Assembly: GCF_001997345.1 (NCBI RefSeq)
Contig: NZ_CP019606.1
Coordinates: 1 to 64,000 of the forward strand
DNA from: Tessaracoccus aquimaris
GTDB lineage: Bacteria > Actinomycetota > Actinomycetes > Propionibacteriales > Propionibacteriaceae
DNA length: 64,000 nucleotides
Direction of reading: 5' to 3'
Shown: positions 34,035-46,083 of the stretch, one piece after another
Position numbering within the stretch: the stretch's first letter is position 1
How the letters are laid out: each line of letters starts with the position of its first letter
Made by a program: the position numbers and the translations under genes
Notes under the pieces: generated by a model
What the model was told of the DNA's origin: nothing
Seen by the model: only the letters and a program-made list of their open reading frames with translations
Database searches by the model: none

Positions 34035-35342
34035 ATGAGTGAATCCAAATCGGTCTACATCGCCATTTCGTCCGATATTCTCCACCGAGGCCATCTGAGG
34101 ATCATCGAGGCCGGAGCGGAACTGGGCGAGGTAACCGTCGGTCTGTTGACCGACCGGGCGATCGCCACCTACAAGAGGCTGCCGGTGCTCGGCTGGGAGT
34201 CGCGGGTCGCGCTCGTGTCGAGCATGCGCTCGGTCGCCCGGGTGGTCGAGCAGGACTCGCTGTCCTACGCAGACAACCTCCGTCAGCTTCGCCCCGACTA
34301 TGTGGTGCACGGCGACGACTGGCGCACAGGTAAGCAGTCCCTCGTCCGGGCTGAGGTGCTGTCGGTGCTCGCCGAGTACGGCGGCGAACTCGTCGAGGTC
34401 CCCTACACCTCCGGCGTCTCCGGCACCGAGGTCGAGCGCGGCCTGCGCCCGCTGATGAACACGGCCGACCGCCGCCGCGGCAAGCTGCGCCAACTGCTGG
34501 CGCTGAAGCCCTTCCTGCGTGTCATGGAGGTCTCCAACGGCCTCAGCGCGCTGATCGTGGAGAACGTCCACACCGAGGACCCCGAGGAGATCGCGCCCCG
34601 CGAGTACGACGCCATGTGGGTCAGCAGCCTCTGCGACTCCAGCTTCAAGGGCAAGCCCGACATCGAACTGGTCGACTTCACGAGCCGGATGAACACCATC
34701 CACGAGATCATGGAGGTCTCCAGCAAGCCGATCATCGTCGACGGTGACACCGGAGGCAGGATCGAGCACTTCAGCTACACGGTGCGCACCCTGGAGCGCG
34801 CAGGCGTCTCCGCGGTCATCATCGAGGACAAGACGGGCCTGAAGCAGAACTCGCTCTTCGGCACCGACGCGGTGCAGACCCTCGACGATCCCGAGGCATT
34901 CGCGGCCAAGATCCTCGCGGGCAAGCGCGCCCAGGTGTCGCGTGACTTCATGATCTTCGCCCGCCTGGAGAGCCTGATCGCAGGCGCAGGCATCGAGGAC
35001 GCCCTTTCCCGCGCCTCCGTCTACCTGGCGGCCGGGGCCGACGGCATCATGATCCACTCCAAGGAGAAGGACGGCAGCGAGATCCGCGAGTTCCTCGCGC
35101 AGTTCCGCGCAGGCCACCCGGACGTGCCCGTCGTCGTGGTGCCCACCACCTACAACCACATCCACGAGGACGAACTGAGCGAGATGGGGGCGAACATCAT
35201 CATCCACGCCAACCATCTGCTGCGCAGCGCCTACCCCGCGATGTTCAACACTGCCAAGAAGATCCTGGAGTGTGGCCGGAGCAAGGAAGTCGACGACGAG
35301 ATCATGCCCATCAAGGACGTCCTGAAGTTGATTCCCGAATGA
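34035..35342 (+). CDS. aepX: Phosphoenolpyruvate mutase with N-terminal cytidylyltransferase-like domain
   Basis: PEP mutase forms the C-P bond, turning PEP into phosphonopyruvate, the entry step to nearly all phosphonates. In the 435-residue protein, residues 1-135 are a nucleotidyltransferase-like domain with HRGH at 17-20 and HGDDWRTGKQS. The rest is the isocitrate-lyase-type barrel with IVDGDTGGRIEHF and the PEP mutase signature EDKTGLKQNSLFG. This two-domain form is known for AepX. ATG 34035 is preferred over GTG 34032 because GGGGG lies 6 bases before it. The stop overlaps aepY by 4 bases. Confidence 0.95.
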   Translation: MSESKSVYIAISSDILHRGHLRIIEAGAELGEVTVGLLTDRAIATYKRLPVLGWESRVALVSSMRSVARVVEQDSLSYADNLRQLRPDYVVHGDDWRTGKQSLVRAEVLSVLAEYGGELVEVPYTSGVSGTEVERGLRPLMNTADRRRGKLRQLLALKPFLRVMEVSNGLSALIVENVHTEDPEEIAPREYDAMWVSSLCDSSFKGKPDIELVDFTSRMNTIHEIMEVSSKPIIVDGDTGGRIEHFSYTVRTLERAGVSAVIIEDKTGLKQNSLFGTDAVQTLDDPEAFAAKILAGKRAQVSRDFMIFARLESLIAGAGIEDALSRASVYLAAGADGIMIHSKEKDGSEIREFLAQFRAGHPDVPVVVVPTTYNHIHEDELSEMGANIIIHANHLLRSAYPAMFNTAKKILECGRSKEVDDEIMPIKDVLKLIPE

Positions 35343-36463
35343 GCCGCATCGAGACCCCCGAGTTCTACGACTACCTGGTCGAGAACGGGGTGGACCTCTT
35401 CGCGGGCGTGCCCGACTCGCTGCTGCAGGACCTCTGCGCCTGCATCGACGACAGGTCGCCCCGTGAGCGCAACATCGTGACGGCCAACGAGGGCAACGCC
35501 GTCGGTCTCGCCTGCGGGTACCACGTCGCGACCGGCCGCTTCGCCGCCGTCTACCTCCAGAACTCCGGCCTTGGCAACATCGTCAACCCCGTGTTGTCGC
35601 TTGCCCATCCCGAGGTCTACAGCGTCCCCATGCTGCTCATCGTGGGTTGGCGCGGTGAGCCTGGGGTCAAGGACGAACCGCAGCACGTCGCGCAGGGTCG
35701 GCTCACCCCGGCCCTCCTCGACGGACTGGAGATCCCCTACCAGGTGCTCGACCCCGACTCCTGGCGCGAACAGGTCGACGGGGCGCTCGACACCATGCGC
35801 GAGACGAACGCCCCCGTGGCGATCCTGGTCCGCAAGGGCACCTTCAGTAGCTACGCCTTCGCTAAGCGCGCGACCGCGCTGGATCTGACGCTCTCCCGCG
35901 AGGAGGCGTTGGAACAGGTCCTCGAGGCCATCGGGCCGGATGCCTTCGTGGTGTCCACCACGGGCAAGACCTCCCGCGAGGTCTTCGAGATCCGTGAGCG
36001 CCGCGAACAGGGCCACGCCCACGACTTCCTCACGGTAGGCGGCATGGGGCACAGCGCCTCCATCGCGATGGGCATGGCGCTCGGCACGGACGAGCCCGTC
36101 TACTGCGTCGACGGTGACGGCGCATTCCTGATGCACATGGGGTCGGCGGCCGTCATTGCGCAGCAGGCCAAGGACAACTACCGCTACGTGCTCATCAACA
36201 ACGGCGCGCACGAGTCGGTCGGCGGTCAGGCGACCGTCGCGTTCGACATCGACATCGAGGCAGTCCTGCGCGGCGTGGGATTCGAGAACGTCGAGACGGT
36301 CAGGTCCGCAGATGCGCTGCCGGACGCCATGGCCCGTCTCTCCGACCGGCCACGGTCCGCGCTCATCATCGAGACGGCCCAGGGTTCCCGCGCCGACCTC
36401 GGAAGGCCGACGGTGACCCCACTGGCCAACAAGGCCAACATGATGCTCGAGCTCGGAGGATAG
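35339..36463 (+). CDS. aepY: Phosphonopyruvate decarboxylase
   Basis: The 374-residue thiamin diphosphate enzyme decarboxylates phosphonopyruvate to phosphonoacetaldehyde, making the unfavourable mutase step irreversible. The catalytic Glu lies in TANEGNAVGLACGYH at about residue 51. The ThDP-Mg motif begins CVDGDGAFLMHMG and closes with INNGAHESVGG. Length is typical of AepY/Ppd. ATGA overlap with aepX, and a 5-base gap to the three-domain gene, show one operon. Confidence 0.95.
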   Translation: MSRIETPEFYDYLVENGVDLFAGVPDSLLQDLCACIDDRSPRERNIVTANEGNAVGLACGYHVATGRFAAVYLQNSGLGNIVNPVLSLAHPEVYSVPMLLIVGWRGEPGVKDEPQHVAQGRLTPALLDGLEIPYQVLDPDSWREQVDGALDTMRETNAPVAILVRKGTFSSYAFAKRATALDLTLSREEALEQVLEAIGPDAFVVSTTGKTSREVFEIRERREQGHAHDFLTVGGMGHSASIAMGMALGTDEPVYCVDGDGAFLMHMGSAAVIAQQAKDNYRYVLINNGAHESVGGQATVAFDIDIEAVLRGVGFENVETVRSADALPDAMARLSDRPRSALIIETAQGSRADLGRPTVTPLANKANMMLELGG

Positions 36464-36468
36464 CCTCG

Positions 36469-39216
36469 GTGAAGGCGCTGATCTTCAACTCCGGTGTCGG
36501 CAATCGGATGGGCGAGTTCACTCGCGACAACCACAAGTCGATGGCGACGCTGTCCAACGGCGAGACCATCTTCGGGAGGCAGTTGCGACTGCTCGTCGCG
36601 GAGGGCATCTCGGAGGTCGTCGTGACCACTGGCCCCCACGTCGAGCAGTTGCGTGCCGTCGCCGACGATCCCCGGTTCGGCGACCTTGTTGTCACCTTCG
36701 TGCCCAACGACAGGTACCTCGAGACGAACTACATCTATTCGATGTATCTCGCCCGCGGACACCTCGACAGCGACGTCATCATGCTGCACGGTGACCTCGT
36801 CTTCACGGCCGGTGCGTTGAGGGCGATCCTGGCGGACGAGCGAACCGACCTCGGGGCGGTCAACGCCAGCCTTCCCCTGCCGGAGAAGGACTTCAAGGCG
36901 AGGATCCGCAACGACGCCATCGTGGAGGTCTCCGTCGCGATCGACGGCCCCGACTGCGTCGCGTTCCAGCCGATGTACAAGCTCAGCCGCGAGGTCCTTG
37001 CCGCCTGGCTCGCCAGGGTCGACGACTACGTCGCGGCCGGCACGACCTCGGTCTATGCCGAGAACGCGCTCAACGAGATAGCAGAAGGGCTCGCTATCCG
37101 TCCCTTCTCCTACGACGGCCACCTCGTCGCGGAGGTCGACACCCTCGATGACCTCGCGTCCGTTTCGGCAGAGGTACGGGTGCTGGACGCTGCAGAGCAG
37201 ACGGTGCTGACCGGGGAGGGTGCAGCCCAGGCCCTGATCGCCGAACTGAACCGCCGCGGGGTCCGACGCCTCCTGGTGGTCGCGGGCACGGCATTTCACC
37301 AGTCCGTGATCCGCCGTGCCCTCGACGAGGCCTCCGTCGGATACGTCACCTTCGCCGGCTACTCGCCCAACCCGAGGCAGGAGGAGGTGGCCGCGGGCGT
37401 CACCGAGTACCGCGCCCAGGGGTGCGACGCGATCCTCGCCGTCGGCGGCGGAAGCGCGATGGATGTTGCCAAGTGCGTCGCGCTTCTGGTCAGCTCCGAA
37501 GGCACCGGGTACCCGGAGTGGGGCGAACCGCTGGCTGCTCGGGTTCCGCTGTTCGCGGCCCCGACCACGGCTGGCACCGGCAGCGAGTCGACCCACTTCG
37601 CCGTCGTCTACATCGACGGGGTGAAGCACTCCATCGCCCACGATGCGATCCTTCCCGACCTGGTGGTCCTCGAGCCGGAACTGCTGCGGGCGCTGCCCGA
37701 GTACCACAAGAAGGCCAGCCTCCTCGACGCGCTCGCGCAGTGCGTCGAGTCCGTGTGGGCCCTCTCGGCCACCCCTCGGAGCCGCGCGTACGCCGTCGAG
37801 GGCATTCGGCTGATCCTTGCCAACTTCTTCCCGTACTTCCACAAATCGGGACGCTTCGACGCCAAGGCCGCCAACGCCATGCAGCAGGCGGCGAACCTGA
37901 GCGGCCGCGCGATCAATCTGACCAAGACGACCGCAGCCCACGCGATGAGTTATGGACTGACCACCACCTTCGGCCTGGCGCACGGCCACGCGGCCGTCCT
38001 GAGCCTCCGCGGGGTGTGGCGCCAGTACATCGCGGCGGCCCGCTCGTCGGCCGACGACGAGGCGACCGAGAGGCTCAGGGGCGCGTTGGACGTGCTCGCC
38101 TCCGCCTTCGCGGTGAAGACCTGGGAGGAGGCGCCAGAGAAGCTCGACATCATGCTCTCGGCACTCGCGCTTCCTGATCCCGTCGACGTGGACCTACTGG
38201 TCGCGGGGGTGAACCTCGAACGGTTGGGCAACAGCCCGATCAGGTCCTCCGAGGCAGACCTGCGCAGGTCCTACGACTTCGCCCTTGGCCTGCGCCAGAG
38301 CCCCGTCATCGGTGGTGGCAAGAACCGCAAGCCGGCGGGCGTGGACTTGATCACGCCCCGCGAACTGCCCGAACTTCAGGCGGTGGAGCTTGGCATCCTC
38401 AAGGCCTTCGACGCCTATTGCGAGGAACAGGGGCTGCGGTACTACCTCAGCGAGGGGAGCATGCTCGGGGCCGTTCGCCACGGCGGCATGATCCCCTGGG
38501 ACGACGACATCGACGTCATGATGCCGCGTGCCGAGTTCGACCGGTTGGCGGCGCTCGCGCGCGACGGCAAGCTGCCTGAGGGCTTCAACCTCGACTGCTT
38601 CCAGACCAACCCCCGGCACTGGGTGCTCGGTGCCAAGTTCCAGATGACGGCGCCGAGTCGGTTCGTCCAGCCGCAGGTTTCACACCTGGCCACCCACTGT
38701 GGCCCCCACATCGACATCTTCACGGTGGATGACGTCCGACGCCCCCATGGCTGGAAGTTCCGCACCCAGGCCTATGCTCTGCGCGGTCTCAGGCGGGCAC
38801 TCTTCATGAGCTCCGGGCGCTCCCGCGGACTCAGGAAGAACCTCCTGGCACGGGTCCCGATCTTCATCGTCACCAAGCTCCTGCCCACGAGAGCGTTCCA
38901 CAACCTGATCGTCTACCTCCAGGCAGGGTTCAACTCGGGCCCAGGCTCGGAACATCAGGCCAACCTCTGCAGTTACTACCCCTTGGAACGCGAGGTGTTC
39001 CCCACCGAATGGTTCGGCGACGGACGCCGCGTCGACTTCGACGGGGTCAGCACCGTCATCCCCGACCGTGCAGAGGACATGCTCGCCAAGATCTACGGCC
39101 TGAACTATGCCGGGATCCCGCAGCCTTCGGTCGGGAGACAACGCCGGCACAGCTTCTATGTCCGCTCCGAAGCAGTTGGCTCTGAGACGACAAGCAGACG
39201 AGTGAAGGAGTGCTAG
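36469..39216 (+). CDS. Three-domain protein: nucleotidyltransferase, phosphonoacetaldehyde reductase-like iron ADH, LicD transferase
   Basis: The 915-residue protein has three domains. Residues 1-240 are an NTP transferase of the sugar/phosphocholine cytidylyltransferase type (NSGVGNRMGEFTRDNHKSM, HGDLVF). Residues 250-612 are an iron-type alcohol dehydrogenase (AVGGGSAMDVAKC, TTAGTGSES, Asp420, His491, HGH at 505-507); Gln424 sits where the first His ligand usually is. Residues 630-885 are a LicD domain (EGSMLGAVRHGG, IPWDDDIDVMMPR). After AepXY, the middle domain should reduce phosphonoacetaldehyde to 2-hydroxyethylphosphonate, the first should activate it with a nucleotide and LicD should transfer it to a glycan. 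Domain calls are firm; substrates are inferred. Confidence 0.9.
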   Translation: MKALIFNSGVGNRMGEFTRDNHKSMATLSNGETIFGRQLRLLVAEGISEVVVTTGPHVEQLRAVADDPRFGDLVVTFVPNDRYLETNYIYSMYLARGHLDSDVIMLHGDLVFTAGALRAILADERTDLGAVNASLPLPEKDFKARIRNDAIVEVSVAIDGPDCVAFQPMYKLSREVLAAWLARVDDYVAAGTTSVYAENALNEIAEGLAIRPFSYDGHLVAEVDTLDDLASVSAEVRVLDAAEQTVLTGEGAAQALIAELNRRGVRRLLVVAGTAFHQSVIRRALDEASVGYVTFAGYSPNPRQEEVAAGVTEYRAQGCDAILAVGGGSAMDVAKCVALLVSSEGTGYPEWGEPLAARVPLFAAPTTAGTGSESTHFAVVYIDGVKHSIAHDAILPDLVVLEPELLRALPEYHKKASLLDALAQCVESVWALSATPRSRAYAVEGIRLILANFFPYFHKSGRFDAKAANAMQQAANLSGRAINLTKTTAAHAMSYGLTTTFGLAHGHAAVLSLRGVWRQYIAAARSSADDEATERLRGALDVLASAFAVKTWEEAPEKLDIMLSALALPDPVDVDLLVAGVNLERLGNSPIRSSEADLRRSYDFALGLRQSPVIGGGKNRKPAGVDLITPRELPELQAVELGILKAFDAYCEEQGLRYYLSEGSMLGAVRHGGMIPWDDDIDVMMPRAEFDRLAALARDGKLPEGFNLDCFQTNPRHWVLGAKFQMTAPSRFVQPQVSHLATHCGPHIDIFTVDDVRRPHGWKFRTQAYALRGLRRALFMSSGRSRGLRKNLLARVPIFIVTKLLPTRAFHNLIVYLQAGFNSGPGSEHQANLCSYYPLEREVFPTEWFGDGRRVDFDGVSTVIPDRAEDMLAKIYGLNYAGIPQPSVGRQRRHSFYVRSEAVGSETTSRRVKEC

Positions 39217-39493
39217 GGATGGGGCAGGAAGAACAAAAACTCACCATGCGAAATAGGCTGGGTGGTGTCAGGCGAAGAATCGTCTCGATGAGGAAACGCT
39301 ATCGATACACCGTCAGGCGTGCAAGCGCTCGCTCTATCTCAGTTGATGTCCAGAGGTATCTACGTTTCACTCAGTCGCGACCTGTTGACCCAACGCTGGT
39401 TCTCTATGAGTCTAGCGGTGGCGCGGGTCTGATCTGTAACCCCTATGCTATATTCCTGGTTCTGCTGTCTGCTCCGGAGTACTCGCACCTGCG

Positions 39494-39501
39494 GCATATG
39501 T
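39494..39501. repeat. Target duplication of the first ISL3 element, left copy
   Basis: GCATATGT directly precedes the left inverted repeat; the identical right copy is at 40951-40958. Perfect 8-bp duplications are typical of ISL3-family insertion. Confidence 0.95.
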
Positions 39502-40950
39502 GGCTCTTCACAGATGAGAGTGGAGTTGGGGTCTGAAGCCGCCTGCCTCGAGGAGCGATCTGAGTCTGTAGTGGGCGAGGTTGCGGAACCCGAGGGCGAT
39601 ACCGCGGAGGTGCTCGAGCCGGCCGTTGATGGCCTCCGTGGGGCCGTTACTGGTGCCGGGATGGTCGAAGAACGCCAAGATGTCGTCGCGGCGTTTGTGG
39701 AGAGTCCGGCCGAGCTGAGCCAGCTCGATCAGGGCCTTCGGGACACCTGCCTTGAGCGAGTTGATCACTCTCGTCAGCGCCCTGCGACCAGCGGTGCGGT
39801 CCTTGTCGCGGTACGCGGCGATGATGCTTTGGTAGACGCTCCAGGTGACTTCAACCTCGGCGTGATCCTCACTCGCGAACAGCGTATCGAGGCGTGTGTT
39901 TTGCCTGGTGGTGAGCAGGTTCACACCGGTGTGGAGGAGCCTGCGGGCTTTGTAGAGAGGGTCATTGCGGAGGCCTCGGCCGCCGGTGAGTTCCCGCTGG
40001 ACTCGCTGCCGGGTCCGGTTCAGCTTGTCACCTGCCAAGGCGACCACATGGAACGGGTCCATCACTGTGGTCGCGTCTGGCACAGCCTCAGCCGTAGCGC
40101 TCTTGTATCCGGTGAAGCCGTCCATCGCGACGATCTCCACGGCCGCCCTGAACCCAAGGCTCTGGGCGTTGAGCCAGGATTTGAAGACCTGCTTCGAGCG
40201 GCCCTCGATTAAGTCCAGCAACCGGGCCGGGCCGGTCTTGTCCCTTGCCGGGGTCAAGTCGATGACAACGGTGACGTACTTGTCACCGCTGTGGGTGTGG
40301 CGCCAGCAGTGTTCGTCGACCCCGACAACCTTGACCCCCTCGAGCCTGTCGGGGAGATCGATCAGGACCTGCTGGCCCAGCTCGGTGACCGCGTCGTGGA
40401 CGGTGCCCCACGCCGTCTGCAGCACCGCCGCGACAGCGCTGATCGAGCAATGGTCCAGCACCACCTCCCGCAGCGCCCACCACACCGCTGACCTGGTCAG
40501 TTTCGACCGAGGCTGCGCCACTGTCTTGAGCCGGTGGCGCCACACCTTGCCGCAGCCGCGGCAGCGATACCTCGGCGCCTGAACCTGTAGCTTCGTGGAG
40601 GACCTACCAACCGGCACATGGGTGAACCAACGAGTGAAGGTGTCGTGCCAGCCGCCCGTCGCGCCGCAGGCCGGGCAGGTGCTATCGGGCAGCACCGGTG
40701 CACAGTACAAGATCGTCTTGTCGGGCCACACCTGCTGCGCCTTCACCTGCAGACCCAGGACGTCGATCCGGGCAAAGGTGTTCACATCGGGCGCAGTGAT
40801 CTTGGGAGTGGCAGGAGTCGGTGAGGTAACGTCAGACATGAGCCTTGTTCGTTGTGAGGAGTGGACTAGACACTCACATCCTCCCAGCGGCAAGGCTCCC
40901 TACGTCTTCACGCCCACCAAGCCCGGTCCCACTCTCAAATGGGAAGAGCC
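39502..40950 (-). mobile_element. ISL3-family insertion sequence 1 (1449 bp)
   Basis: The ends begin GGCTCTTC and form imperfect inverted repeats matching at 19 of 22 positions (39502-39523 and 40929-40950). Between them lies one transposase on the minus strand. The 8-bp duplication GCATATGT flanks it exactly, so it inserted as a unit into the TagF/GT4 gene. It is complete and could be active. Confidence 0.95.
39508..40839 (-). CDS. ISL3-family transposase (element 1)
   Basis: The 443-residue transposase has an N-terminal zinc finger (CPACG and CRGCG), a helix-turn-helix region, and a DDE domain with Asp in VGVDEHCWRH, Asp in VAMDGFTGYK and Glu in PTEAINGRLEHLRG. The stop lies within the left inverted repeat. 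ATG 40839 has AAGG close upstream; a GTG slightly inside (VNTFARID) is an alternative start. It is related to, but clearly different from, the transposase of element 2. Confidence 0.93.
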   Translation of the reverse strand: MSDVTSPTPATPKITAPDVNTFARIDVLGLQVKAQQVWPDKTILYCAPVLPDSTCPACGATGGWHDTFTRWFTHVPVGRSSTKLQVQAPRYRCRGCGKVWRHRLKTVAQPRSKLTRSAVWWALREVVLDHCSISAVAAVLQTAWGTVHDAVTELGQQVLIDLPDRLEGVKVVGVDEHCWRHTHSGDKYVTVVIDLTPARDKTGPARLLDLIEGRSKQVFKSWLNAQSLGFRAAVEIVAMDGFTGYKSATAEAVPDATTVMDPFHVVALAGDKLNRTRQRVQRELTGGRGLRNDPLYKARRLLHTGVNLLTTRQNTRLDTLFASEDHAEVEVTWSVYQSIIAAYRDKDRTAGRRALTRVINSLKAGVPKALIELAQLGRTLHKRRDDILAFFDHPGTSNGPTEAINGRLEHLRGIALGFRNLAHYRLRSLLEAGGFRPQLHSHL

Positions 40951-40958
40951 GCATATGT
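40951..40958. repeat. Target duplication of the first ISL3 element, right copy
   Basis: GCATATGT follows the right inverted repeat directly and matches 39494-39501 exactly. After precise excision the reading frame resumes HLRHMWVISDEEE. Confidence 0.95.
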
Positions 40959-41352
40959 GGGTCATTTCGGACGAAGAGGAAATTGATCGACTTCGGGGCA
41001 GATTTCGTGGTGTCGAGCGTGTGACGTTCGTCCATCGGGGCAGCATTGAGTATCTGGAAGGGCTTGCCACGGCCGGTCATATTATCCAGAACACCTCGTA
41101 TCCGTCCTTCTTCTCAAAGCGCAACGGTCAAGTCTGCGTAGACACGTGGCACAGCACCTCTGTCAAGAAGCTCGGGTTCGACATGCCTGGGGGCAACATA
41201 CACTCCCGGAACATGATACGAAGTCTTCTCATATCGGACTTCGTCCTTTCGCCCAACCCGTTCATGACGCGCATTTTTCGCGATTCGTACCGTTTGCAGA
41301 ACTTGTATCAGGGCAAAATTCTGGAGGTCGGATATCCGAGGAACGACTCGAC

Positions 41353-41360
41353 GCTTAGGG
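41353..41360. repeat. Target duplication of the second ISL3 element, left copy
   Basis: GCTTAGGG precedes the left inverted repeat and is repeated at 42787-42794. After excision the frame reads NDSTLRAAKDEV. Confidence 0.95.
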
Positions 41361-42786
41361 GGCTCTTCCCAATTGAGGGTGTAGGTAGGGGTTCCGGCGT
41401 GGCGGCTGGATAGAGGGGTCGAGGCCTCCCGAAGATGGAAGTTCCTAAGCTGTCCATCTGGAAGACCTCGACGTGTTCAACGCTACCTTCACCGCGCCTG
41501 ATCTGACGACCTTCTGCCGCCTCGACGAGCTCGGGTTGGAGGTGACTGGCCAACACGTGACCGCGCGCCGGGCGGTGCTGGAGTGCCGCGTCACGGATGC
41601 TGATGACTGGTGCCACAACTGTGGCGGGCGCGGTTTGGTGCGTGACACGGTAATCCGAGGCCTGGCTCACGAGCCCTTCGGTTGGAGACCCACTGTGCTG
41701 CGGGTGCGGCTGCGCAGGTACCGGTGTGTCGAATGCGGTCATGTGTGGCGCCAGAGCATGGACCGGGCCGCTGAACCGAGGGCTCGGCTGTCGCGGCGTG
41801 GGGTGCGGTGGGCGCTCGAAGCTATCGTGTGTCAGCACCTCACCGTGGCGAGGGTCGCCGAAGGGCTGGCGGTGGCGTGGGACACCGCCAACGATGCGAT
41901 CATCGCCGAGGGTCGTCGGGTGTTGATCGATGATCCGTCCCGGTTCGACCAGGTCACCGTGCTCGGGGTCGATGAGCATTGCTGGCGTCACACCCGTGCC
42001 GGGGACAAGTTCGTCACCGTGATCATCGACCTGACCCCGGTAGCGGCTGGGACTGGCCCGGCACGGCTGCTCGACATGGTCGAGGGCCGCTCGAAACAGG
42101 TGTTCAAACGCTGGCTCGCTGCCCGTCCAGCCGCCTGGCGGGCCGGCGTGGAAGTCGTGGCGATGGACGGGTTCACCGGCTTCAAAACCGCCGCCGCCGA
42201 GGAACTCCCCGACGCAGCTGCGGTGATGGACCCGTTCCACGTCGTGCGCCTGGCCGGGGAGGCTGTCGACAAATGCCGCCAACGCGTCCAACAAGCCACC
42301 ATGGGGCATCGAGGCCGCCGCGGGGACCCGCTCTATCAAGCCCGCCGCACCCTACTCACCGGCGCCGATCTACTCACCGACAAACAAGTCACACGGCTCG
42401 AAGACCTGTTCGGCGACCAGAACCACGTCGAGGTCGAAGCCACGTGGGGCATCTACCAGCGCCTCGTCCAGGCCTACCGCTGCAAAGACCGCACACTCGG
42501 CCGCCACCTCATGGCCAGCGTGATCGATGCGATCGCCACCGGCGTCCCCGCTGAGCTGACTGAACTGGTCCGCCTGGGTCACACCCTGAAACGCCGCGCG
42601 ATCGATGTGTTGAACTTCTTCGACCGGCCCGGCACCAGCAATGGTCCCACAGAAGCCCTCAACGGCCGCCTCGAACACCTCCGCGGCTCCGCTCTCGGGT
42701 TCCGCAACCTGACCCACTACATCGCCCGCTGCCTCCTCGAAGCCGGCGGATTCAGACCCCGCCTACACCCTCAAATCGGATGAGCC
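41361..42786 (+). mobile_element. ISL3-family insertion sequence 2 (1426 bp)
   Basis: The ends begin GGCTCTTC and GGCTCATC and match at 22 of 25 inverted-repeat positions (41361-41385 and 42762-42786). One intact plus-strand transposase fills it, and GCTTAGGG duplications flank it. It is oriented opposite to element 1 and has its own target duplication, so it arrived separately. Confidence 0.95.
41473..42783 (+). CDS. ISL3-family transposase (element 2)
   Basis: The 436-residue transposase has the same layout as that of element 1: zinc finger CHNCGGRG and CVECG, then the DDE residues in LGVDEHCWRH, VAMDGFTGFK and PTEALNGRLEHLRG. The GTG at 41473 is the first start after the left inverted repeat, and the stop lies in the right repeat. 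The frame is intact, so it could move the element. Confidence 0.93.
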   Translation: MFNATFTAPDLTTFCRLDELGLEVTGQHVTARRAVLECRVTDADDWCHNCGGRGLVRDTVIRGLAHEPFGWRPTVLRVRLRRYRCVECGHVWRQSMDRAAEPRARLSRRGVRWALEAIVCQHLTVARVAEGLAVAWDTANDAIIAEGRRVLIDDPSRFDQVTVLGVDEHCWRHTRAGDKFVTVIIDLTPVAAGTGPARLLDMVEGRSKQVFKRWLAARPAAWRAGVEVVAMDGFTGFKTAAAEELPDAAAVMDPFHVVRLAGEAVDKCRQRVQQATMGHRGRRGDPLYQARRTLLTGADLLTDKQVTRLEDLFGDQNHVEVEATWGIYQRLVQAYRCKDRTLGRHLMASVIDAIATGVPAELTELVRLGHTLKRRAIDVLNFFDRPGTSNGPTEALNGRLEHLRGSALGFRNLTHYIARCLLEAGGFRPRLHPQIG

Positions 42787-42794
42787 GCTTAGGG
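42787..42794. repeat. Target duplication of the second ISL3 element, right copy
   Basis: GCTTAGGG, identical to 41353-41360, directly after the right inverted repeat. Confidence 0.95.
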
Positions 42795-44766
42795 CCGCCA
42801 AGGATGAGGTCATCAAGGATCTCCTCGACCGAGGGGTCAGGATTGATCCCGGCAAGAAGTTGGTCTTGTATGCACCTACCTGGCGAGGTGAGTCTGTCAG
42901 TCAAGTTACAGGCGACGGGGCGGCTTTGCTGGACATCCAGCAGCGTCTTATCTCGCTCATCGACCCGGATCAGTATCAGGTCCTGATCAAACCCCATCCG
43001 TATACCTATCGTGCGTTGTCGCCGGAGGAGCGGGAGTCGGGTCGCTTCATCCCGCAACAGGTCGACGCCAATGAACTCTTCTCGCTCGTTGACATCCTGA
43101 TATCTGACTACTCCAGTATCTATCTTGACTTCCTGATCACCGGAAGACCTGTATTGTTCTACTTGCCTGACCAGGAAACTTATCTCGCGGATCGCGGAGT
43201 CTATTTTGATCTGGATGAACTTCCCGGGCCTGTGACTCACCGTCTGGAGAAGCTTGCCCAGTGGATCAAAGACATCGATTCCGTCGCTGACTCGTATGCC
43301 CACCGATACAGGGAGACTCGTCAATGGGCTTGTGCCCGCGATGACGGGAAGGCCTCGGAGAGAGTCGCCCGCGCGGTGTTCGGTGGGGTTAGTGACGGGG
43401 TCGTCGATGATTTCCTTACGCGCGCACCTATTCGACTCCTTTTCTATGTCTCGAGCTTCGGTGCAAACGGGGTGTCGTCTGCCTTTAGGGCGCTCCTGAG
43501 CATGCTGGATCGCACGAAGTACGACATTACGGTATATGGATTACTGTCCGATGAAGTCGGACGGCGCAACTTCGATGAGTTGCAGGATGTGCGATCGATG
43601 CCCAGGTTTGGGGCCTTCACCATGACCGCGCGCGAAGCTAAGGCGGTTGAGTATTACTCTCGCTACGCTGCTGATGGCCCGCTCTTCAAGTTGTTCAATG
43701 CTGAGGAGCCCCTTCGGAGGGATTATCGGCGGTCGTTCGGTGATGCTGCCTTCGACTATGTTATCGACTTCTCTGGCTACGGTACCCTGTTCCCTGGAAC
43801 CTTCAGGTATGGTGCGGGCGAGGCGAAACGGATAATCTGGCAACACAACGACCTAGCCGCTGACATTCAGAACCGTGGCAAGCGAAAGCTGAAGAAATAC
43901 AGTGTGGTGAACACCTCGCTGACTGGGCTCAGGGACACCTACGGCGCGTTTGACAAGGTGGTTTCCTGCGGCGAGCACGTCATGGAAGTCAACAGAGAGA
44001 AGCTCTCGACGCCAAGCACGTATGACAAGTTCACCTTCGTGAACAACGTCATCGAGGTCGAAAGGGTTCGAGCCCTGCTGGAAGAAGAACCGGAGTACAA
44101 GGTCGACGGCCATCTGGTCGCGGCGGTTGCTGGCCCTGCTGGGGCAAGACGACTCACCCTCGTCCCAAACACGCCTCCCGCGCCTGAGTCGGGGTTACCG
44201 TTCATCACCTTCGTGACGCTCGGTCGGCTCTCTCCCGAGAAGAACCAGGCCAACCTGATCAAGGCCTTTGGGCTCTTCCTGCAGGAGTATCCGAACGCGA
44301 GGCTCTACATCCTCGGCGGCGGCGACCTCGATCGATCTCTCAAGGGGTTGGCTTCTTCACTGGGGATCGCTGAACTCGTGTCGCTGCCGGGCCACCTTCG
44401 CAATCCATTCATGCTGGCCAAGCACTGCGACTGCTTCCTCCTGCCGTCCAGGTATGAGGGATTCGGTCTAGTGGTCCCGGAGATGAGGATGTTGCGGAAG
44501 CCCATCATCCTCTCCCGGTTTGATGCCGCCCCTTCAGTCTCTATCCCCGGAGGCCAGTACGAGATCGGATTCGAAGTAGAGGACATCCTGGGCGGACTCC
44601 GTGCCTATGCCAAAGGTGACGTTCCAGGCGACTACGAGTTCGACGTCGACGGGTACAACGAAGCGGCGTATCAGCAGTTCGAGCAGATGCTGGAGTCGCT
44701 GGACGGTTCCTCATGATGTCCAGGGATGTCTTTTGGTCCTAGCTCCGGGGATGGCATGCTGGCCCG

Positions 44767-46083
44767 GTGCCAGTAGAGGGTCGACGTAACCACACCATCG
44801 ACATCGTCAGGGCACTGTCGGTGCTGATCGTGGTGGTGTTCCACGGCTTCATCTACAAGGCGTCCATCGGCCCGGACGGGACCGTCTCCATCGCCAACTG
44901 GGCGCCCCCGACCTGGGTGTTCGCCCTGTCCTGGCCGCTGATGGCGATGCCTGCGTTCTTCGTGTGCGGTGGCTTCGCCAATGCGCTGATCATCGACAAG
45001 ATGCGCTCGCGTGGCACCGGGTTCGCGCACTACCTGGCCAACCGCGGCCGACGGCTCACCGGTGGGCTCGCGCTATTCGTCACCTTCTTCGCGGCTGTCG
45101 CGACCCTCATCGACGTGCTGGGCGGGTTCGAGGCTGCGGTGCAACTCAGTTCGCATTTCATGCGGCTGCTCTGGTTCATCTCCGTCTACCTCGTCATCGT
45201 GCTGCTTGCGCCGCTGATGGTCGACCTGCACGACAGGTTCGGCGCCTGGGTCGTGGTGGTGATGCTGGTGCTCGTGCTGCTGGTCGACCGGGCCGTCCTC
45301 GGGCATGGGCTGAGCGACGTCGGCCAGATCAACATGTTCCTGGTCTGGCCGCTGTGTCACCAGTTGGGCATCGGCTACCAGCGCGGCTGGTTCCGCAGCG
45401 GGCCTGTGGTGCGCACCTGGCTGATCCTGGCGGCGGGAGCGCTCGGCATCGTCGTGGCGATCTTCTACTTCGGGTACCCGCCATCGGCCGTCGGCTTCGC
45501 CAACGCTCCGGTCGCCAACCACCTGCCGCCGACGCTTGCGATGGCCCTGCTCGGGGTGGTGCAGGCCGCGTCGATCGGCCTCGTGGAGCGGTGGGGGATC
45601 TTCGCACGCCTGTCGCCACGCACGGAGTCCCGCCTCGCCCGGCTCAACTCGCTGATGATGACCGTCTACCTGTGGCACATCCCCTGCCTGCTGATCGGGG
45701 GCATCGGCCTGCTGCTGCTTGCGGACGCGCTGCCAAGGCTGGCCGGGCTGTTCCTGCTGCAGGGCACCGTCGTCGCGGCAGGCGTGCTGGTGATGCTACT
45801 GGTGGTGCCCACGATCGGCTGGGTGGAGTACAAGCTGATCCCGCCGCTGGGGGAGCGTCAGGACCGCAACCTTGCGCTCGTGTCGTTCTGCCTGACCATC
45901 CTCGCGACGATGCTCGTGTGGCACTACGGAACGGTCATCGACCCGCGCACACCGTTCTCGAGCCTCGGGGTGCTGGCGATCTGGCTCGGCGCGTGGCTGA
46001 TGGTGCGTGCCTCCCGCCCGGTCGGGGTCGAGAGGGCGCCCGACGATGCGCTCAAGCCAGCAGCGAAACCGCGGACACAGTAG
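44767..46083 (+). CDS. Membrane acyltransferase (acyltransferase 3 family)
   Basis: The 438-residue integral membrane protein has about ten to eleven helices and starts HTIDIVRALSVLIVVVFHGF, the typical first helix of acyltransferase-3 proteins with the conserved active-site His. PAFFVCGGFANAL and MMTVYLWHIPCLL are further family features. These enzymes O-acetylate or acylate surface polysaccharides and lipids. The GTG at 44767 follows CATGCT by 6 bases and lies 50 bases after the TagF/GT4 gene, so it could modify the same polymer, though GC content returns to the genome norm here. Confidence 0.83.
   Translation: MPVEGRRNHTIDIVRALSVLIVVVFHGFIYKASIGPDGTVSIANWAPPTWVFALSWPLMAMPAFFVCGGFANALIIDKMRSRGTGFAHYLANRGRRLTGGLALFVTFFAAVATLIDVLGGFEAAVQLSSHFMRLLWFISVYLVIVLLAPLMVDLHDRFGAWVVVVMLVLVLLVDRAVLGHGLSDVGQINMFLVWPLCHQLGIGYQRGWFRSGPVVRTWLILAAGALGIVVAIFYFGYPPSAVGFANAPVANHLPPTLAMALLGVVQAASIGLVERWGIFARLSPRTESRLARLNSLMMTVYLWHIPCLLIGGIGLLLLADALPRLAGLFLLQGTVVAAGVLVMLLVVPTIGWVEYKLIPPLGERQDRNLALVSFCLTILATMLVWHYGTVIDPRTPFSSLGVLAIWLGAWLMVRASRPVGVERAPDDALKPAAKPRTQ

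What the first reader, a model, noticed from the sequence alone, without database searches (positions are those of the whole stretch)
34035..46083. Candidate surface-phosphonate locus: C-P bond synthesis linked to nucleotide activation, LicD transfer and a TagF-like polymerase
Seen: PEP mutase, phosphonopyruvate decarboxylase, a nucleotidyltransferase/iron-ADH/LicD protein, a TagF-like/GT4 gene and an acyltransferase, all in one direction with 4-50 base gaps. Known: AepX and AepY make phosphonoacetaldehyde, iron-ADH relatives reduce it to 2-hydroxyethylphosphonate, LicD proteins attach phosphocholine-like groups to glycans, and phosphonoglycans are known from Glycomyces and Stackebrandtia. Inference: this cell makes nucleotide-activated 2-hydroxyethylphosphonate and decorates a teichoic-acid-like or capsular polymer with it. 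The aminotransferase expected for 2-aminoethylphosphonate is absent.
Basis: partly seen in the sequence, partly recalled or inferred. Interest (0 to 1): 0.88.

Follow-up and report, generated by a model that had tools for sequence, protein, structure and literature searches.

The report
Fused hydroxyethylphosphonate locus, polymerase gene broken
This bacterium carries a compact set of fused enzymes that most likely makes a rare carbon-phosphorus group (2-hydroxyethylphosphonate), activates it with CTP and attaches it to a surface sugar, but the neighbouring polymer-building gene has been broken by two jumping DNA elements.

Summary
The core observation holds: PEP mutase, phosphonopyruvate decarboxylase and a 915-residue nucleotidyltransferase/iron-ADH/LicD fusion run in one direction. 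One part is wrong: the "TagF-like/GT4 gene" starts at 39219 and is split by two ISL3-type insertion sequences, each with an 8-base target duplication, so the claimed short gaps hide 3.6 kb.

Best reading: a hydroxyethylphosphonate (HEP) branch of the known phosphonyl-tailoring (Pnt) pathway. Among 100 PEP-mutase genes from several phyla, 57 have a nearby iron-ADH, 26 the AEP transaminase, 3 both, 14 neither. ADH-linked PntC domains have His where Treponema PntC has the amine-contacting Glu104 (39 of 39 loci); transaminase-linked ones have Glu (22 of 24 readable). The Fom1-like domain fused to PEP mutase keeps its ISST signature in 17 of 18 ADH loci without PntC and 0 of 38 with it. Both patterns rest on few independent events. 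No AEP-transaminase match was found among this genome's PF00266 hits.

So PntC, not the Fom1-like domain, probably makes CMP-HEP, and LicD transfers it. The triple fusion is complete in 5 of the 7 PepM-positive among 198 family genomes, and part of a five-domain chain in a Ruminococcaceae MAG. No chemistry is shown.

The parts
34035..35342 (+). PEP mutase with N-terminal Fom1-like cytidylyltransferase domain (residues 1-140); its signature reads GVSGT instead of GISST
   Evidence: TIGR02320 383 bits, PF01467 39 bits; Fom1 CyTase 5x3d 157 bits; motif table
35339..36463 (+). phosphonopyruvate decarboxylase, overlapping the previous stop codon
   Evidence: TIGR03297 428 bits
36469..37188 (+). PntC/LicC-type cytidylyltransferase domain of the 915-aa triple fusion; His107 (codon 36787-36789) at the Tde-PntC Glu104 position
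37201..38328 (+). iron-containing alcohol dehydrogenase domain; ligand positions D420, Q424, H491, H505
   Evidence: PF00465, PF25137; ligand columns over 54 ADH sequences
38419..39099 (+). LicD domain, the only PF04991 match in this genome
   Evidence: PF04991 121 bits; own-genome search
39219..39501 (+). first piece of the interrupted PF04464/GT4 gene (start codon, about 94 codons)
   Evidence: sequence, in-frame translation without stop
39502..40950 (-). ISL3-family insertion sequence A; transposase 39508-40893 (-); target repeats 39494-39501 and 40951-40958
   Evidence: NF033550 344 bits; repeats
40951..41360 (+). middle piece of the interrupted PF04464 gene (profile positions 46-172)
41361..42786 (+). 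ISL3-family insertion sequence B; transposase 41473-42783 (+); target repeats 41353-41360 and 42787-42794
   Evidence: NF033550 355 bits; repeats
42787..44716 (+). last piece: rest of the PF04464 domain plus GT4 glycosyltransferase; low G+C (57.3% against 68.2% for the window)
44767..46083 (+). acyltransferase (PF01757), open frame intact; role in the pathway unknown

Best explanation
It is a HEP-branch phosphonyl-tailoring locus. PEP mutase makes phosphonopyruvate, Ppd makes phosphonoacetaldehyde, the Fe-ADH domain reduces it to 2-hydroxyethylphosphonate, the PntC-type domain of the same protein activates it as CMP-HEP, and the LicD domain moves the HEP group from CMP onto a hydroxyl of a surface glycan. 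The Fom1-like domain fused to PEP mutase is probably a relic that no longer does the activation. The neighbouring PF04464/GT4 gene is inactivated by two insertion sequences, so in this strain the acceptor must come from elsewhere or the decoration is lost. Shown here: gene content, fusions, motifs, linkage patterns, the breaks. Inferred: every reaction, the substrate, the acceptor.
For: Each enzyme step has a family match. The triad is kept at 73, 74 and 62% identity in congener G012 and in further family genomes. Near PepM: ADH 57, AEP transaminase 26, both 3, neither 14 of 100. None of the genome's 8 PF00266 stretches matches an AEP-transaminase model. His at the amine-contact position in 39 of 39 ADH loci with PntC, Glu in 22 of 24 readable AEP loci. 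One genome (L160) has the two clusters side by side: PntC(His)-CyTase-PepM followed by ADH, then AEPT, CyTase-PepM, Ppd and PntC(Glu). A Treponema genome has separate ADH and AEP loci (L029, L191). ISST signature 17 of 18 without PntC, 0 of 38 with PntC among ADH loci. The PntC domain model ranks nearest to the AEP cytidylyltransferase 6pd2.
Against: All His-type PntCs form one clade (one H/E change; the program warned of long branches there), so the residue link may be ancestry; on the PepM tree only 3 independent pairs exist (all agree, p 0.25). Among ADH rows PntC presence changes only 3 times and the ISST signature 2 times; of 3 independent pairs 2 go as predicted and 1 does not differ (p 0.5). 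Four AEP loci keep ISST although PntC is present. The second amine contact (Glu196) is conserved as Glu198. The ADH domain scores below the phosphonate Fe-ADH equivalog cut-off (146 against 423.7). 14 of 100 loci have neither enzyme, three of them with His-type PntC. No chemistry.
Confidence: 0.62

Rival explanations
1. The locus is a decaying remnant in this strain: the cassette is left over, the polymer gene is broken, and no phosphonate reaches the surface.
For: Two insertions split the PF04464/GT4 gene; no other PF04991 LicD match in the genome; patchy presence, 2 of 36 genus genomes over the PepM cut-off, own included.
Against: PepM, Ppd, the 915-aa fusion and the acyltransferase are open frames with conserved motifs. 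In other family genomes the cassette occurs without this PF04464 gene in the stretch fetched. Another GT2-PF04464 protein, with a cytidylyltransferase-domain protein two genes away, exists at 3.51 Mb.
Confidence: 0.3
2. The Fom1-like domain fused to PEP mutase makes CMP-HEP; the PntC-type domain activates something else or is inert.
For: The domain matches the Fom1 HEP cytidylyltransferase over 131 residues (157 bits) and keeps HxGH.
Against: Its ISST signature is changed (GVSGT), as in all 38 ADH loci with PntC, and kept in 17 of 18 without. PntC keeps Arg13 and Lys23, the counterparts of Tde Arg15 and Lys25.
Confidence: 0.15
3. The product is not HEP: the ADH domain works on another aldehyde, or another phosphonate is made.
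For: Sub-cut-off match to the phosphonate Fe-ADH equivalog; 14 of 100 PepM loci have neither ADH nor AEP transaminase, so other branches exist.
Against: ADH and transaminase replace each other next to PepM across the survey; metal-ligand columns are kept; no AEP-transaminase match in the genome.
Confidence: 0.12
4. The locus makes a free phosphonate natural product (antibiotic type).
For: PepM clusters of Streptomyces do this; CMP-HEP is a fosfomycin intermediate (PMC6697681, parts read).
Against: Apart from the two transposases, the cassette's own neighbours here are LicD, PF04464/GT4 and acyltransferase sequences; GT2, Stealth or LicD genes lie near it in L022, L231 and L234.
Confidence: 0.05

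Closest known systems
Pnt phosphonyl-tailoring pathway with PntC and PntC-AEPT (Treponema denticola, Atopobium rimae; Rice et al. 2019, PMC6697681; text parts 1-4 of 8 and found passages read)
   Same: PEP mutase + Ppd, PntC cytidylyltransferase, PntC fused to the enzyme that consumes phosphonoacetaldehyde (Treponema), LicD-like transferase nearby
   Different: ADH replaces the transaminase; His replaces the AEP-contacting Glu104; LicD is in the same polypeptide
Fom1 of fosfomycin biosynthesis (CyTase-PepM, makes CMP-HEP; as described in PMC6697681)
   Same: same CyTase-PepM fusion; HEP as expected substrate
   Different: CyTase signature changed here; a PntC domain is present; the methyltransferase and epoxidase of fosfomycin making (recalled) are not among the locus genes
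CyTase-PepM / Ppd / Fe-ADH cassettes without PntC in other genomes of the phylum (L130-L134, L136-L139). Stackebrandtia, named a phosphonoglycan producer in a passage of PMC12723261, is recalled to have HEP phosphonoglycans; its genes were not looked at
   Same: same C-P and HEP steps
   Different: there the CyTase keeps its signature, no PntC over my score limit was found, and LicD matches (L131, L132) are separate proteins
Lic phosphocholine pathway (LicC, LicD)
   Same: LicC-like and LicD domains, CDP/CMP-activated donor logic
   Different: no choline genes among the locus genes; donor predicted to be CMP-HEP

Membership tests
PEP mutase | EDKX5NS motif and TIGR02320 above cut-off | tested here: met
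   EDKTGLKQNS; 383 bits against 319.6
Phosphonopyruvate decarboxylase | TIGR03297 above cut-off | tested here: met
   428 against 312.5
PntC (AEP cytidylyltransferase) | PntC fold | tested here: met
PntC (AEP cytidylyltransferase) | catalytic Arg15 and Lys25 counterparts | tested here: met
   R13, K23 invariant in 12 sequences; the GXG(T/S)R...PK consensus is only partly kept (GVGNR, HK); no clear Lys153 counterpart
PntC (AEP cytidylyltransferase) | Glu104 contacting the AEP amine | tested here: not met
   His107
PntC (AEP cytidylyltransferase) | activity on AEP | not testable with these tools
   needs assay
Fom1-type HEP cytidylyltransferase domain | HxGH and GISST signatures | tested here: not met
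   HRGH kept, GVSGT instead of GISST
Phosphonate Fe-ADH equivalog TIGR03405 (PsrA) | score above cut-off | tested here: not met
   146 against 423.7, yet the best NCBIfam match of this protein
LicD | PF04991 above cut-off | tested here: met
   121 against 22.6
TarF/TagF glycerophosphate transferase | NCBIfam TarF cut-off | tested here: not met
   middle and last piece score 60 and 73 against 550, each alone; gene broken
Phosphonoglycan producer | phosphonate bound to a surface glycan | not testable with these tools
   needs 31P NMR

The most novel reading that the evidence does not exclude
CMP-HEP, unlike CMP-AEP, carries a free hydroxyl. In relatives where PntC, ADH, LicD, GT2 and a PF04464 domain are one chain (L024), LicD could prime and the PF04464 domain could polymerise HEP into a teichoic-acid-like chain with a carbon-phosphorus backbone, poly(2-hydroxyethylphosphonate). 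The window would be a strain that lost such a step by insertion. PF04464-like genes are not enriched in ADH loci, so this is a long shot.
Probability: 0.05. Interest if true: 0.92.

Novelty: new variant of a known kind. Interest (0 to 1): 0.6.

Why it matters
Rice et al. expect PntC enzymes to activate a variety of phosphonates but tested only AEP and phosphocholine in the parts I read. The survey here turns the question into a one-residue prediction (His for HEP, Glu for AEP at the Tde Glu104 position), names a natural control pair in one genome (L160), and says when the PepM-fused cytidylyltransferase should be dead. If right, the type of cell-surface phosphonate could be read from sequence in bacteria and at least one archaeal MAG. 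My ten text searches (listings only, one search showed 20 of 38) listed no paper whose title or abstract start describes a PntC-ADH-LicD fusion or this switch; most subscription journals are not held.

Tried and rejected
AEP as product: held less likely because no linked transaminase was found, no AEP-transaminase model matched the genome's PF00266 stretches, and because of the ADH/transaminase split. Poly-HEP by PF04464 enrichment: 16 of 57 ADH against 8 of 26 AEPT loci, p 0.80. L044 and L061, first taken by me as AEP-type PntC-transaminase fusions (note), proved to be PntC plus class I aminotransferase with no PepM match in the locus, and are in no count. 12 PepM-fetched loci (L140, L205, L206, L209-L215, L221, L222) fell below my PepM score of 200 and were dropped; one PepM fragment (G1151) was not fetched. 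Nucleotidyltransferase matches of 38 bits or less (for example L131, 27 bits, Asn at the column) were not counted as PntC. Five of the 18 ADH loci without PntC (L037, L133, L134, L137, L158) have under 3 kb of sequence on one side, where PntC could lie unseen. Sigma-70 promoter scan: 0 found, uninformative. Copy number of the insertion sequences and the empty site in congeners were not tested.
Full report
What is there. The window is base 1-64000 of a 3.93-Mb single-contig genome, 68.2% G+C. From 34035 three genes overlap or nearly touch: a cytidylyltransferase-like/PEP mutase fusion, a phosphonopyruvate decarboxylase, and a 915-residue protein with PF12804, Fe-ADH and LicD domains. The PepM motif EDKX5NS is present. 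The PF04464/GT4 gene next in line starts at 39219 and is split by two ISL3-family elements at 39502-40950 and 41361-42786, each between perfect 8-base repeats. The middle and last pieces match adjoining parts of the PF04464 profile (46-172 and 173-366). The pieces have 53-57% G+C, and the lowest 1-kb windows of the whole window lie there (mean 68.2, sd 3.2, lowest 55.5), so this gene may have a different origin from the cassette.

Distribution. Over the PepM cut-off, 2 of 36 genomes of the genus (own included) are positive. In the family 7 of 198 are positive at E 1e-60, 6 of them over the cut-off, in 4 of 29 genera. The neighbourhoods of these seven were scanned: the complete triple fusion occurs in five (own, L022, L231, L234, L235), PntC-ADH without fused LicD in one (L233), and one is cut by a contig end (L232). 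No piece of this PF04464/GT4 gene was found in the stretches fetched from the six others. In L022 the cassette lies beside other genes (by eye a quinone-oxidoreductase-type ORF upstream; a GT2 protein downstream).

Survey. PepM was searched in 396 genomes of the phylum (15 positive at E 1e-60, own included), 296 of the class of G275 (11), 391 of the class of the L024 genome (32), 198 of the phylum of the L029 Treponema genome (26) and 345 of the phylum of the L027 Prevotella MAG (8) (a few genomes recur). Flanks were fetched and, with the 80 loci, 173 loci were scanned by phmmer; 100 PepM genes scored over 200. Within 9 kb 57 have an Fe-ADH, 26 an AEP transaminase, 14 neither, 3 both. Of the three, two are the neighbouring clusters of L160 and one (L152) has only a weak ADH score of 62. 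"Neither" includes L174 with a DegT aminotransferase beside it and L163, where the contig ends.

Cytidylyltransferase relic. Fom1's CyTase signature is GISST. Among 56 ADH loci with the domain it is kept (G[IV]SS[TS]) in 17 of 18 without PntC and 0 of 38 with PntC. One locus without PntC lost it (L179), and one that keeps it lost HxGH (L158). Four transaminase loci, one clade, keep it although PntC is present, so the rule is not universal. PntC presence changes 3 times and the signature 2 times on the tree among ADH rows; of 3 independent pairs 2 go as predicted, 1 shows no difference. The Fisher p of 2e-13 therefore overstates the evidence.

Enzyme competence. The ADH ligand columns are D in 52, Q or H in 53, H in 53 and H in 53 of 54 ADH sequences; the window has D, Q, H, H. 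A solved methanol dehydrogenase (6jko) also has Q there. LicD keeps a GSMLGAVRHGGMIPWDDDID block, part of the 34-residue match to fukutin-related protein. Window PntC keeps R13 and K23; the partly conserved Lys153 of the Treponema enzyme has no clear counterpart (read). The genome's 8 PF00266 stretches match cysteine desulfurases and other enzymes, none an AEP transaminase at E 1e-15.

Mechanism and limits. The order PEP to phosphonopyruvate to phosphonoacetaldehyde to HEP to CMP-HEP to glycan-HEP follows from the families and from Fom1/PntC precedent (PMC6697681); no step is shown for these proteins. Fusing PntC to ADH mirrors PntC fused to the transaminase in Treponema: the activating enzyme is tied to the enzyme that makes its substrate. 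The acceptor is unknown. The genome has one other PF04464 match, a GT2-PF04464 protein at 3.51 Mb beside a Stealth protein and a cytidylyltransferase/oxidoreductase-domain protein, a possible teichoic-acid-like acceptor pathway.

Verdict. Real locus, good first reading of the chemistry, wrong on continuity and on the polymerase; a new variant (HEP branch, triple fusion, His-type PntC) of a known kind of pathway.

Noticed in passing
L235 669-5516 (-): Directly after an intact triple fusion lies a second PntC-ADH-LicD relative (29% identity) whose nucleotidyltransferase, GGGS, metal-ligand and WDDD motifs look lost by eye, fused to GT2 and a LicD with an intact motif: possibly a dead partner subunit. 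Draft genome.
   Followed up: partly
L160 4860-14666: Two PEP mutase clusters side by side in one genome: PntC(His) with ADH, PntC(Glu) with AEP transaminase.
   Followed up: yes
L029 and L191 (same Treponema genome, G715): One genome holds an ADH-type locus with intact CyTase signature and no PntC, and an AEP-type locus with a PntC-AEPT fusion.
   Followed up: partly
L036 9992-14310: A Methanosphaera MAG (archaeon) carries PntC (His type), CyTase-PepM, Ppd and a weak ADH match in a row.
   Followed up: no
L044 10744-12633; L061 10801-12633: LicC-like domain fused to a class I aminotransferase (best NCBIfam match CobD) next to LicD, no PepM match: perhaps a CDP-ethanolamine route.
   Followed up: no
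L236 9829-15402 (-), genome 3.51 Mb: Second teichoic-like locus of this genome: GT2-PF04464, Stealth protein, cytidylyltransferase-GFO/IDH/MocA fusion.
   Followed up: no
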